58,612 nt of DNA from a virus: positions 1 through 58,612 of the IMG/VR virus record IMGVR_UViG_3300027833_000058; one strand, 5' to 3'. The notes beneath the pieces are model-generated. The model saw only the letters and a program-made list of their open reading frames with translations, ran no database searches and had not been told where the DNA came from. Position 1 is the first letter of the stretch, and the number at the start of each line of letters is the position of its first letter. The translations under genes were made by a program, and so were the position numbers. Positions 21,281-42,464 of the stretch are shown here, piece by piece.

Positions 21281-21309
21281 ATTATACTATGTAATAGTAG
21301 CTTTGTCAA
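21281..21309 (-). promoter_or_regulatory. early promoter before the 62-residue gene and bilin reductase
   Basis: GGTTGACA, 17 bp, TATAAT on the minus strand. It overlaps the end of the heme oxygenase gene. Confidence 0.78.
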
Positions 21310-21856
21310 CCATTTCTTTTGAAAGTTCATCAAATAATTCTGAAGCAAAATCAAAACATATTTTTGCCTCATCAGCCATATCGTCTGATAACAATGTTCT
21401 AAACTGTTCAATAAGAACTTTAGTGTCACCTTCGAATTCGTACATCAAGCCATTGCCTGGAGTTTTCTTTTTGATAATTTGTCCACCGTGTAATTCACCA
21501 AAGTGGCGAACATACATATGCGCAAGTAAAGCTTCGTTATCATCAGCTTCTGCTAATCCATTAACATATGCTGCATACTTACTTACTGATGGAGGAAACA
21601 CGCCTGTAGGAGAGTAACCGAAGACTTCTTCTAGTTCTCTAATATCTTCAAAGATACGTCTATGACGTTTGATAGCGTGTAAGTTTGGGGGGATGATAGT
21701 GTGTCGTTCTAGTACTTCGTAATTCATGTACTGACAACATAGGAATTTGTGATACAAGGCTGTATCGATTTTTCCTGAAATAAGTTCTTTAGCAAATGCT
21801 CTTCGCTCAGCAGACTGATGGTGAGCCCAAGTTAATTCTTTCAATTTGTTTGACAT
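21287..21856 (-). CDS. heme oxygenase
   Basis: The protein has 189 residues. The proximal heme ligand is H13 in AHHQSAERRAF, matching the family HxxAE motif. The distal helix motif is GELHGGQIIKK. The enzyme opens heme to biliverdin, CO and iron. It is followed in the same unit by the bilin reductase, giving a heme-to-phycobilin route. It could also serve iron release alone. The gene starts just after the tmRNA coding piece and may be transcribed from the tmRNA promoter. Confidence 0.92.
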   Translation of the reverse strand: MSNKLKELTWAHHQSAERRAFAKELISGKIDTALYHKFLCCQYMNYEVLERHTIIPPNLHAIKRHRRIFEDIRELEEVFGYSPTGVFPPSVSKYAAYVNGLAEADDNEALLAHMYVRHFGELHGGQIIKKKTPGNGLMYEFEGDTKVLIEQFRTLLSDDMADEAKICFDFASELFDELSKEMVDKATIT

Positions 21857-21879
21857 AATATCCTCTTTAATAATTAAAG

Positions 21880-22175
21880 TGCCACTTTTCTGTTGCTAAG
21901 TAAGTGGCCAACTCCCTGTGATTATGCCGCTAGGGCTAATCCAGATGGTGCGAAATTTTCATTTGCATTTAGTTTAATTGATCTATGCGCGATCATCCGG
22001 TAAACTCCACTTCACTACAACACCTGTCGATCCTAGTTCAGCCCCATCAAAAACACACTACCCGCTTTATCAGATACGTTCCAGAATTAACTGGAATAGT
22101 GTGTTTTTGGTGGAGCTGTCGGGTACTGCCCCCGAGTCCAGCATGTTTTCACGTTGCTTCAACGTTTACAATATT
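21880..22175 (-). ncRNA. ssrA: circularly permuted, two-piece tmRNA (alphaproteobacterial type)
   Basis: On the minus strand the acceptor piece comes first: a T arm TCGGG-GGCAGTA-CCCGA, then CAGCTCCACCA ending at 22108. An intervening segment follows that folds through AAAACACACTA and TAGTGTGTTTT. The coding piece starts at 22045 with GGGGCTGAACTAGGATCGACAGG. GGGGCTG pairs with CAGCTCC in 7 bp including a G3-U70 wobble, the alanine identity pair. The tag frame is at 21966-21922 and reads ANENFAPSGLALAA then TAA. AGTTTA/TAAACT closes a stem just before the tag, and a pseudoknot (GTTG/CAAC with GCCACTT/AAGTGGC) follows it. The exact outer ends are approximate. Confidence 0.93.
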
Positions 22176-22210
22176 ATTTATATAATATACTAGTAACAGA
22201 CGCTTGTCAA
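22175..22210 (-). promoter_or_regulatory. combined early and late promoter of the tmRNA
   Basis: AACTGTTGACA, 17 bp, TATTAT on the minus strand (22182-22210). A perfect late box TATAAATA (22182-22175) overlaps the end of the -10. The gene can thus be read by both host sigma70 and gp55 polymerase. Confidence 0.78.
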
Positions 22211-22217
22211 CAGTTAT

Positions 22218-22463
22218 TTAATCATAACCTAAAACGGCAACTTTAGACATCTCTGCAATGCGTAATTCTGTTACACGATCTTCATATGCTACATCGAAAC
22301 CTTCTTCGGCATATTGGCATCTCTCGTGATTGCCCCATAATCTTTTAAAATAACTATCATAAAGGTATTCAACTACAGAGTCAGGTTCTGCTTTATCAAT
22401 TAGTTGACCTTTTACCATCCAATTCAAACGGTTGGCTTCTTTACGTACTTCTGGTGAGCACAT
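22218..22463 (-). CDS. 81-residue protein of unknown function
   Basis: I chose ATG 22463 (MCSPEVRKEANRLNW) because GGAGG lies eight bases before it; the ATG at 22490 has no ribosome site. The protein is mixed-charge and helical, with no signal or known motif. A CATAAATA sequence, one base off the late box, lies about 30 bases upstream. Confidence 0.55.
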   Translation of the reverse strand: MCSPEVRKEANRLNWMVKGQLIDKAEPDSVVEYLYDSYFKRLWGNHERCQYAEEGFDVAYEDRVTELRIAEMSKVAVLGYD

Positions 22464-33503: not shown

Positions 33504-33532
33504 TTGACATTACTGTGTCTATGGTATAGAAT
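33504..33532 (+). promoter_or_regulatory. early promoter for gene 39
   Basis: ATAACTGTTGACA, 17 bp, TAGAAT. It shares its long upstream element with the promoters at 35633 and 48253. Confidence 0.75.
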
Positions 33533-33560
33533 GGCTATATAAATTAATGGAGATTAAGCT

Positions 33561-35618: not shown

Positions 35619-35632
35619 GTTGAAATTAACTG

Positions 35633-39766: not shown

Positions 39767-40651
39767 ATGGCAAAAGTTCTAGTAACGGGTGCAACAGGCT
39801 ACATCGGCAGTCACGTTTGCAAACTCTTAAAATTAAATATGCACGAAGTAGAAGCTTGGGATACTAACATCCACGGCGAATATAATGAGATATCAGAATA
39901 TGTAGATCGATTTGAGAAAATTGATATTACTAATATTCCATATGCTTATGCTCACTTTGATGCAGTAGTTCATCTAGCAGGTCGTAGTGTTGTACCACAG
40001 AGTCTAAAAGAACCAACAGAATACTATAGAGTTAATGCTATGGGTACTTCACATATTCTTGATAAGGTAGCAACACCAAATTTCATTTTCGCTTCTACAT
40101 CTAGTGCTTGGGAAATGGCTTCGCCATATGCAAAAAGTAAAGTAGCAGCAGAAGATATTATTAAGGAAAAAGCAGATGGGCACACTATTTTTAGGTTTTT
40201 TAATGTATCTGGTACTGACGGTACTAATAGGCAACTTGGCCCTCCCAGTCATCTTATCCGTGTTGCTGCTATGGCTAGTCTTGACAAATCTCCCTCAATT
40301 AATATCTTTGGCAATGACTATACTACTCGCGATGGTACTTGCGTCCGGGATTACATTCATGTTCTCGATCTTGCTACTGCTATAGTACAAGCTGTAGAGA
40401 ATGGTCCACGTAACACAGATTACGAATGTCTTGGTAGTTACCAAGGTTTCACTGTTCTAGAGGTTCTAGATATGATGGAGAAAGTAACTGGTGTTAAGTT
40501 GGAAAGAAATATTTCTGGCAGAAGAGAAGGTGATGCTGTATCTTCTGTAGTTGACGAGTTATCAGAGTATGCAGTACTTACTAAAACTCTAGAAGATATG
40601 TGCAGAGATCAATTTAATTTAGAAAAAGGGTTGACAAACACCCAGAACTAA
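39767..40651 (+). CDS. NAD-dependent nucleotide-sugar epimerase (GalE/WcaG-like SDR)
   Basis: The protein has 294 residues. The Rossmann GATGYIGSHVCKLL motif is at 7-20, the Ser/Thr site STSSAWEMASPYAKSK contains the catalytic YxxxK, and RFFNVSGTDGTNRQLG matches GalE-type enzymes. It would interconvert UDP-sugars for the glycosyltransferases encoded in this genome. ACAGGAGATTACA precedes the ATG. Confidence 0.9.
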   Translation: MAKVLVTGATGYIGSHVCKLLKLNMHEVEAWDTNIHGEYNEISEYVDRFEKIDITNIPYAYAHFDAVVHLAGRSVVPQSLKEPTEYYRVNAMGTSHILDKVATPNFIFASTSSAWEMASPYAKSKVAAEDIIKEKADGHTIFRFFNVSGTDGTNRQLGPPSHLIRVAAMASLDKSPSINIFGNDYTTRDGTCVRDYIHVLDLATAIVQAVENGPRNTDYECLGSYQGFTVLEVLDMMEKVTGVKLERNISGRREGDAVSSVVDELSEYAVLTKTLEDMCRDQFNLEKGLTNTQN

Positions 40652-40659
40652 GTTATAAT
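40631..40659 (+). promoter_or_regulatory. early promoter of the closed-stem RNA
   Basis: GGTTGACA, 17 bp, TATAAT, at the end of the epimerase gene. Predicted transcription start is near 40666, exactly at the base of the RNA stem. Confidence 0.8.
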
Positions 40660-40666
40660 GGCTATA

Positions 40667-40766
40667 TTAAGTTAATGGTATGGAACGAGACGGCGAGAAG
40701 TTATGTAAGTGGTTTTCCCCAGCAACTTTTAGGACCCACGATGTATACCGCCATTAACTTAATTTT
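40667..40766 (+). ncRNA. about 100-nt structured RNA with a perfect 12-bp closing stem
   Basis: TTAAGTTAATGG (40667-40678) pairs perfectly with CCATTAACTTAA (40751-40762), followed by TTTT. The transcript of the promoter at 40631-40659 would begin at the stem base, so this is probably a discrete small RNA. Internal pairings include GAAGTT/AACTT and GTGG/CCAC. No frame with a ribosome site is present. Its class is unknown. Confidence 0.65.
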
Positions 40767-40775
40767 AATTATATT

Positions 40776-41000
40776 ATGAGTACAAAGATTATGAAGTGGT
40801 TAGCTACAGCATTATTCTTAACAGCAGGCACCCTACTATCTCTCAACATTGAGATATCCCGTTTTGGTTTTTTGTTGTTCTTATCCGGACACGTCTTATT
40901 AAGTTATTACTTTTATAAGCAGAAGGATTGGGCAATGACTACTCAAAACGGGTTTTTTCTGTTCATTGATGGTCTAGGAATTTACCGATGGTTTTTCTAA
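40776..41000 (+). CDS. 74-residue three-helix membrane protein, PnuC-like fragment
   Basis: It has three hydrophobic segments: ATALFLTAGTLLSLNI, FGFLLFLSGHVLLSYYF and TTQNGFFLFIDGLGIYRWFF. The last resembles the end of PnuC/half-SWEET-type transporters (QNxxFxxINxxGIYRW). It may be a short transporter-like or membrane-remodelling protein. No catalytic residues are visible. Confidence 0.55.
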   Translation: MSTKIMKWLATALFLTAGTLLSLNIEISRFGFLLFLSGHVLLSYYFYKQKDWAMTTQNGFFLFIDGLGIYRWFF

Positions 41001-41012
41001 GAGGAAAGGATT

Positions 41013-41153
41013 ATGGCAGTTAAATTTGCATCTACTGTAAATATAGTAAAGAACAACAAGAAAACTTCACAAGGCGATAAGAATGTAAAGATGGCTTCAA
41101 TGAATAAGTCAAAGAAACGTTCTTTTAAGAAGTATAGAGGGCAGGGAAAGTAA
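41013..41153 (+). CDS. 46-residue strongly basic protein
   Basis: GAGGAAAGGATT precedes ATG 41013. MAVKFASTVNIVKNNKKT then KSKKRSFKKYRGQGK. Lys/Arg-rich; it could bind nucleic acid. Function is unknown. Confidence 0.6.
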   Translation: MAVKFASTVNIVKNNKKTSQGDKNVKMASMNKSKKRSFKKYRGQGK

Positions 41154-41163
41154 GTAGGAAAAT

Positions 41164-41264
41164 GGTCGGCGCTTTAGGAGTTAAGGGTAGCGAATCCTAA
41201 CTCCAAGGTGGCCGACCCACCTACGCCTAGCTCATCGGCCCAAAACGGCTAACGGTCCTAGGTG
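41164..41264. ncRNA. double-hairpin structured element between convergent genes
   Basis: Hairpin 1: GGTCGGC (41164-41170) with GCCGACC (41211-41217), enclosing GGAGTTA/TAACTCC. Hairpin 2: CACCTA (41218-41223) with TAGGTG (41259-41264), enclosing GCC/GGC. It is G+C-rich and lies between plus- and minus-strand genes that converge. There is no T-run on either side, so it is either a two-way stop or a small RNA. Confidence 0.5.
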
Positions 41265-41267
41265 ATT

Positions 41268-41426
41268 CTACGCTTCAGGCTTCCATATAGTCCAAGCACC
41301 GTAAGCAATCATAACGTAAGCTACTAAAGCAACAGGTGCTAGTAACATCATTACTCCACCACCAATAAGCATTGCTCCATCAGCGGATGTTCTTTCTTTT
41401 AGTCTGTTTTTAATAAAATTTATCAT
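41268..41426 (-). CDS. 52-residue membrane protein
   Basis: ATG 41426 has a strong AAGGAG ribosome site that overlaps the end of the upstream gene. One hydrophobic helix (MMLLAPVALVAYVMIAYGAW) follows a Gly-rich turn. It is the last gene of the late minus-strand operon. Function is unknown. Confidence 0.55.
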   Translation of the reverse strand: MINFIKNRLKERTSADGAMLIGGGVMMLLAPVALVAYVMIAYGAWTIWKPEA

Positions 41427-41428
41427 GT

Positions 41429-41764
41429 CTATGTCTCCTTTTTTTGACGAATTATTTTAGCCTTTTTTCCATTCTCTAACGACTTAATTCTCAATTCAAG
41501 TACATTGATATCTGACACAAGACCGTCGATTTTTTTAGTTACTTTAGGATAACGCTTGCGCCACGCTTCTGGGTCGTCTTGTAACCAAGTCCAACCCCAC
41601 CGAACAGCGAGATAATCTAAACAGTTGTCAAATTTCCCCATTGCCCATAATGCCATATTTGTATTTCGAAACCATGCTAGAAATGCTGCACCAAGAATAG
41701 ATCCGGCGATTGCGGTATAAATCCACAGTGTATCTCCGAACATTGCATTAAGTGTATCAATCAT
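41429..41764 (-). CDS. 111-residue membrane-anchored coiled-coil protein
   Basis: An N-terminal membrane helix (IYTAIAGSILGAAFLAWF) is followed by a Trp-rich linker (WGWTWLQDDPEAWRKRYP) and a short coiled coil. The architecture would fit an inner-membrane lysis or spanin-like protein, but there is no direct evidence. It overlaps the lipase gene by 8 bases. Confidence 0.5.
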   Translation of the reverse strand: MIDTLNAMFGDTLWIYTAIAGSILGAAFLAWFRNTNMALWAMGKFDNCLDYLAVRWGWTWLQDDPEAWRKRYPKVTKKIDGLVSDINVLELRIKSLENGKKAKIIRQKKET

Positions 41765-42464
41765 TTAGTTTCTCCGTATGCTTAACATAGTTTTGCATTC
41801 CGTGATCTTCAGCGCCGTCGAGAATACCAGATCTCCAACCACGCCATTTATCTTTTATCATCTGCCAAGTAGTAAGCTTTCTAATATTACCATAGAAGTT
41901 AATATATTGTTGATCACCGTGATGCTTATATCCCATTATGAATAACGGAACTTTTGTCACTAGATCATTATTATTAACGAATCTTTTATGTGGTGTAGAA
42001 ATAGCTTTAACAAACTTTCGTGTGCCAACTCTTGGAGATCCGAATGTTGTTAGTGATTCTACTTCGGTATATTCTTCCATACGTGAAGTACATATAGTTG
42101 CCATTGCAGCACCTAAAGAATGTCCTGTAATATGTAAGGTTTTCTTTTCATGTGTTAATTGATGCTTTGATATAACGCTCCACAGCTTATCACATTCATT
42201 TCTAAATCCTGAATGAACTAAACCGTGAGTCATTGCTCCACGAGGAATTGCATTTAAATCTGCTAATAAGTCAGATAACTCTGAAGGCTCGGTACCTCTA
42301 AAAGCTAATACATATTCTGTTTTATTCCAAAATGCATGGCACTGAGCACCGTCATCTTCGAAAAATTTATGTCCTGTGTAACCTAATTTCTTTTTGAATG
42401 CTTTGGCTTCCTTGCTATCGAGATACGCAATCTCTGCAAGTTGAGCCATTTTATTACTCCACAT
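41757..42464 (-). CDS. class 3 lipase/esterase-like protein
   Basis: The protein has 235 residues. The alpha/beta-hydrolase nucleophile elbow GHSLG has the catalytic S116. FVNNNDLVTKVP supplies the catalytic Asp region and GAEDHGMQNYVKH the His, the arrangement of the Lipase_3 family. FRGTEP near residue 55 is the family oxyanion segment. It would hydrolyse acyl lipids. There is no signal peptide, so it would act in the cytoplasm or be released at lysis. It sits in a late operon with envelope proteins. Confidence 0.87.
   Translation of the reverse strand: MWSNKMAQLAEIAYLDSKEAKAFKKKLGYTGHKFFEDDGAQCHAFWNKTEYVLAFRGTEPSELSDLLADLNAIPRGAMTHGLVHSGFRNECDKLWSVISKHQLTHEKKTLHITGHSLGAAMATICTSRMEEYTEVESLTTFGSPRVGTRKFVKAISTPHKRFVNNNDLVTKVPLFIMGYKHHGDQQYINFYGNIRKLTTWQMIKDKWRGWRSGILDGAEDHGMQNYVKHTEKLND

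What the first reader, a model, noticed from the sequence alone, without database searches (positions are those of the whole stretch)
40631..40766. Small RNA whose transcript begins and ends at a perfect 12-bp closing stem
A consensus early promoter predicts initiation at the base of TTAAGTTAATGG, which pairs fully with CCATTAACTTAA followed by TTTT. There is no reading frame. Such a discrete, strongly transcribed early RNA suggests a regulatory or decoy role.
Basis: seen in the sequence. Interest (0 to 1): 0.7.

Follow-up and report, generated by a model that had tools for sequence, protein, structure and literature searches.

The report
Modular small RNA of marine phages

Summary
At 40631-40766 there is a perfect TTGACA-17-TATAAT promoter, a start site predicted at A40666, and a 12-bp (13 with A-T) closing stem 40667-40678/40751-40762 followed by TTTT. 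Folding energy alone barely separates it from chance, but comparison does. A homologous RNA of about 97-196 nt occurs in about 80 marine viral contigs, once per record. Covariation is strong: 22 of 26 pairs change on both sides, 0 of 500 shuffles reach the observed scores, and all six helices are supported. Rfam 15 has no match.

The usual form is a three-way junction: closing stem P1, arm A (P2, an invariant CGGCGA/ARGACCCA loop, P3) and arm B (P5, P5b, P6). The arms behave as separate modules. The window keeps P1+A and has lost B. Five contigs keep P1+B and lack A. Four carry A and B as two tandem hairpins, each with its own closing stem.

Most copies sit directly after a phage ribosomal protein bS21 gene, either with their own promoter or at the end of the bS21 transcript with the promoter moved behind them. 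The window lineage has no bS21 there. Best reading: a stand-alone, probably protein-binding, trans-acting phage RNA. Expression and function are untested.

The parts
40631..40659 (+). sigma70-type promoter, TTGACA-N17-TATAAT (12/12 consensus)
   Evidence: the same perfect promoter lies directly upstream in 31 of 41 non-redundant relatives
40666..40763 (+). predicted RNA (98 nt), reduced member of the family: closing stem P1 plus arm A
   Evidence: covariance model R1 hit 40665-40764, 42 bits, E 1.4e-10 in the window; fold
40667..40678 (+). P1 5' strand TTAAGTTAATGG
   Evidence: covariation
40751..40762 (+). P1 3' strand CCATTAACTTAA; window has C where relatives have T, turning a G-U pair into G-C
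40685..40687 (+). P2 5' strand ACG (relatives CCG or CCA)
   Evidence: A-U in place of C-G with partner 40742-40744
40742..40744 (+). P2 3' strand TGT (relatives TGG or CGG)
40689..40697 (+). conserved internal loop, 5' side, GACGGCGAG (core CGGCGA)
40697..40729 (+). P3 hairpin (GAAGTT/AACTTT stem), variable in family
40731..40741 (+). conserved internal loop, 3' side, AGGACCCACGA (core ARGACCCA)
40743..40750 (+). site where arm B (61 model positions, about 70 nt in relatives) is missing
40763..40766 (+). TTTT, weak terminator-like tract
   Evidence: longer T-runs in most relatives
40776..41000 (+). next gene, small membrane protein (conserved start probably ATG at 40791, MKWLATALFLTAG...)

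Best explanation
Shown: the element is a member of a conserved structured RNA family of marine T4-like phages. It has a closing stem carrying two modules, arm A (P2, an invariant CGGCGA/ARGACCCA internal loop, P3) and arm B (P5, P5b, P6), each of which can occur alone or as a separate hairpin. The window copy has only arm A. Inferred: it is made as a free small RNA. Transcription starts at the base of P1, P1 plus the T-run ends it or protects it, and the two arms present conserved internal loops that bind a protein (a phage protein or a host RNA-binding, ribosomal or RNA polymerase protein), so that it works in trans as a regulator or sponge. Reduction to arm A in this phage would leave one binding module.
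For: A 40-sequence alignment gives 22 of 26 pairs with both-side changes, covariation score 0.542 against 0.171 shuffled and at most 0.088 slid, 0/500 shuffles. Exactly one copy in each of 29 records, up to 156 kb long. A perfect promoter places the start at P1 in 31 of 41; T-runs follow P1. The downstream gene is not constant: MALARG-type gene, tRNA-Thr (L247), MKWLATALF gene, or a 447-aa protein. In 8 of 41 the promoter lies behind the RNA, so the RNA is not that gene's leader. Modularity: window A only; five contigs B only; four contigs A and B as tandem hairpins with separate closing stems. The window retains pairing after its loss: C-G to A-U in P2 and G-U to G-C in P1.
Against: No transcript, no isolate and no binding partner are known. 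In most lineages the only visible promoter of the next gene is the one before the RNA, so some read-through, and hence a cis role, is possible. The window's terminator is weak. The A-only form is seen in this record alone (one search found no other), so an assembly deletion or decay cannot be fully excluded.
Confidence: 0.55

Rival explanations
1. It acts in cis: a 5' leader, attenuator or ligand-sensing element of the next gene, or a regulated end of the bS21 transcript; P1 is the terminator stem that the arms switch.
For: P1 is followed by T5-T7 in most members and by the start of the next gene within about 40 nt; 39 of 80 phage bS21 loci carry it directly after bS21.
Against: The element sits on either side of the next gene's promoter in different lineages, before a tRNA in L247, next to unrelated genes in the window and L085 lineages, and is absent between the same two genes in L181, L184, L185. 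No bS21 in the window record or in five records of the window and L085 lineages.
Confidence: 0.25
2. It is a put-like RNA: a hairpin pair at the start of a transcript that makes host RNA polymerase ignore terminators in cis.
For: Starts at +1 of a perfect promoter in 31 of 41; two hairpin modules with conserved internal loops, in tandem in four contigs.
Against: One copy per genome; at the end of the bS21 transcript with a new promoter behind it in 8 of 41; in the window only two small genes follow before the strand switches.
Confidence: 0.08
3. Ordinary: a promoter plus an AT-rich terminator hairpin, with no function of the RNA itself.
For: Weak folding energy (z -0.49 and -1.93).
Against: Invariant unpaired motifs and covariation in internal helices, found across lineages that differ in neighbours.
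Confidence: 0.04
4. Antisense small RNA that pairs with target mRNAs through its loops.
For: Free small RNA is the commonest kind of bacterial riboregulator (general knowledge); P6 loop CGACATACTGA is well conserved in many members.
Against: The P6 loop is opened by inserted hairpins in other members and P3 is freely exchanged, so no exposed loop is constant; the window has lost P6 entirely.
Confidence: 0.08

Closest known systems
6S RNA (Rfam RF00013)
   Same: Free RNA of similar length whose two ends pair in a long closing stem; suggested decoy role.
   Different: Three-way junction or single-arm hairpin with conserved short internal loops; no single central open-promoter-like bubble; no Rfam match to 6S at E up to 10.
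put RNAs of lambdoid phage HK022
   Same: Two hairpin modules at the start of a phage transcript.
   Different: Single copy, movable relative to promoter, followed by T-runs; no sequence relation tested.
glnA glutamine riboswitch, reported at the ssrA (tmRNA) gene of the related phage Melnitz (PMC9004378)
   Same: RNA element in marine T4-like phages; short resemblance of L200 ACACCGAAGGAACG to the glnA core as remembered.
   Different: No glnA match by covariance model in any member tested; different helices.
CsrB/CsrC-type protein sponge RNAs
   Same: Would work by presenting protein-binding motifs.
   Different: GGA motifs are not conserved (GGACCC alternates with AAGACCC; the one after P1 is lost in L169); two unlike modules rather than repeats.

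Membership tests
RNA family defined here (models R1, R2) | closing stem P1 with covariation | tested here: met
   window pairs throughout; family P1 8 of 9 pairs with both-side changes
RNA family defined here (models R1, R2) | arm A core CGGCGA / ARGACCCA with P2 and P3 | tested here: met
RNA family defined here (models R1, R2) | arm B (P5, P5b, P6) | tested here: not met
   missing in the window; also separable elsewhere, so not required for membership: five contigs have B alone, four have A and B as separate hairpins
Any Rfam 15 family, including 6S and glnA | score at gathering threshold or credible E-value | tested here: not met
6S RNA | single central bubble mimicking an open promoter, binding of RNA polymerase | tested here: not met
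   structure from covariation differs; polymerase binding not testable
put antitermination RNA | at the start of early transcripts, acts in cis on polymerase | tested here: inconclusive
   position met in 31 of 41, not in 8 of 41; activity not testable
CsrA/RsmA sponge RNA | multiple conserved GGA motifs in loops | tested here: not met
   alignments
cis-regulatory leader (riboswitch or attenuator) | constant association with one downstream gene | tested here: not met
protein-coding small ORF | conserved reading frame | tested here: not met

The most novel reading that the evidence does not exclude
A new class of modular phage RNA, linked to phage-encoded ribosomal protein bS21, whose two hairpin modules each bind a translation or transcription component and can be fused, split or lost independently; this window is a natural minimal form that isolates module A.
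Probability: 0.2. Interest if true: 0.82.

Novelty: new variant of a known kind. Interest (0 to 1): 0.66.

Why it matters
Few structured RNAs of tailed phages are known outside E. coli models. This one is single-copy, under a perfect host-type promoter in most phages, conserved in unpaired positions across many marine phages, and often next to a phage-encoded ribosomal protein bS21 whose role in host takeover is debated (PMC6375957). Natural A-only, B-only, split and fused forms give ready-made deletion mutants for finding what each module binds.

Tried and rejected
BLAST of the region and of a full-length member against phage genomes found no real homologue; the hit in phage C48C1 lies in a coding region and does not show the motifs. 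The similarity at 35632 is the promoter only. No copy was found with R1 or R2 in other contigs carrying the same epimerase gene or in the isolates Melnitz, C48C1 and HTVC008M. A weak R2 hit in G052 (L255, E 0.004) looks like coding sequence by eye and was not counted. A resemblance of arm B to the glnA riboswitch was tested and not supported. Complementarity of GGCG with CGCC across the arms was considered and dropped, because CGCC becomes CACC while GGCG stays. Literature searches found no description of this RNA in the open-access library. Genome collection: one hit, in a contig binned with a Rhodobacteraceae MAG; I read it as phage sequence, since it carries the same RNA and neighbours as L095.

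Full report
Observation. The RNA predicted from A40666 to about U40763 is 98 nt. Its folding energy is only modestly better than shuffled sequence (z -1.93), so the single sequence could not settle the matter.

Finding relatives. The gene upstream (an NAD-dependent epimerase, Pfam Epimerase) led to L003, L004 and L005, which carry a longer homologous RNA upstream of the same small membrane-protein gene (directly after the epimerase in L003 and L005; after two further small genes in L004). A gapped pattern from its two most conserved stretches, GACGGCGAG and GACCCAYGAYG, found 77 viral stretches, most of them genuine. Further patterns and a search from the neighbouring bS21 gene brought more, about 80 contigs in all.

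Structure. A model built by hand from 11 sequences (R1) was checked on 72 hits (40 distinct) and on 40 distinct sequences. In the last, 94.1% of cells pair, 22 of 26 pairs have both-side changes, and covariation is 0.542 against 0.171 for shuffles and at most 0.088 for slid structures. P1, P3, P5, P5b and P6 are supported separately. P2 is a short CCR/YGG helix that becomes GC/GC in L068 and L139, UCU/AGA in L169, and ACG/UGU in the window; its third position alternates between A.C and G.U. The alignments A3 and A5 were fitted to the model and lean towards it; A2 was aligned without structure, though its structure was chosen from these sequences. E-values come from a shortened calibration.

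Modularity. The usual form fuses arms A and B on one closing stem. The window has P1 plus A (42 bits). L200, L201, L202, L248 and L251, five different contigs, have P1 plus B. L085, L090, L114 and L130 have A and B as two consecutive hairpins, each with its own closing stem (GATTGTTGG/CCAACAATC and TTGGTAGAGG/CCTCTGCCGA), behind one perfect promoter. P3 and P6 hairpin types are also shared between otherwise distant members, for example the P3 of L004 with that of L169, and a 31-nt P3 identical in dozens of contigs, as if exchanged as cassettes. That arms A and B can each be lost, kept or separated is direct from sequence; that each is a binding module is inference.

Context. In the main lineage the RNA lies 30-110 nt after a phage ribosomal protein bS21 gene (Pfam PF01165). 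39 of the 80 best bS21 loci have it, all on the same strand. In L181, L184 and L185 bS21 is followed directly by a homologue of the usual downstream gene, with no RNA between. A 12/12 promoter precedes the RNA in 31 of 41 non-redundant members; in 8 of the other 10 it directly follows it. One member has a tRNA-Thr between the RNA and the next gene. The window lineage (L003, L004, L005, L095, L116) has no bS21 next to it, and none was found in the window or in the L005 (100 kb), L095 and L145 records. Each of 29 records searched whole holds one copy.

Mechanism. A constant RNA with changing neighbours and a movable promoter points to a product that acts as RNA in trans. Invariant nucleotides sit in internal loops of two hairpin modules, which is how proteins often recognise RNA; hence the protein-binding proposal. 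What it binds is unknown. The bS21 linkage makes translation a plausible theatre, but the window and L085 lineages show that the linkage is not obligatory. A cis role at the junction of two transcripts remains the main rival.

Window copy. Loss of arm B is supported by alignment to five close relatives. The remaining helices are maintained by changes specific to the window (A-U for C-G in P2, G-C for G-U in P1), which argues that the reduced RNA is still selected, with the caution that only one record shows this form.

Known or new. No Rfam 15 family matches any member tested, and no description was found in the open-access papers searched. The kind (phage-encoded structured RNA) is known; this family and its split/fused modular form appear to be undescribed.

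Noticed in passing
window 41154-41268: Second strongly structured stretch between two convergent genes (z -4.86), 88.6% identical over 105 nt in L004/L005/L145 with two compensatory U-A to C-G changes; also found by pattern in L257 (the L095 contig). No Rfam match in the window scan; possible second RNA or bidirectional terminator.
   Followed up: partly
window 21831-22225: Phage-encoded alpha-type permuted (two-piece) tmRNA on the minus strand, predicted tag ANENFAPSGLALAA; such genes are known in related phages (PMC9004378).
   Followed up: no
window 33504-33551: Near-perfect promoter before the topoisomerase-like gene whose initial transcribed sequence GGCTATATAAATTAATGG echoes the start of this RNA, GGCTATATTAAGTTAATGG; no RNA model hit there.
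   Followed up: partly
L181, L184, L185 after the bS21 gene: Sister bS21 loci with no RNA between bS21 and a homologue of the usual downstream gene, natural empty sites.
   Followed up: partly
window 41013-41153: 46-aa basic protein (phrog_17967) two genes after the RNA, ending KKYRGQGK, like the C-terminal tails of the phage bS21 proteins next to the RNA in other lineages.
   Followed up: no
window 41757-42464 and 21287-21856: Class 3 lipase-like and heme oxygenase-like genes in the phage.
   Followed up: no
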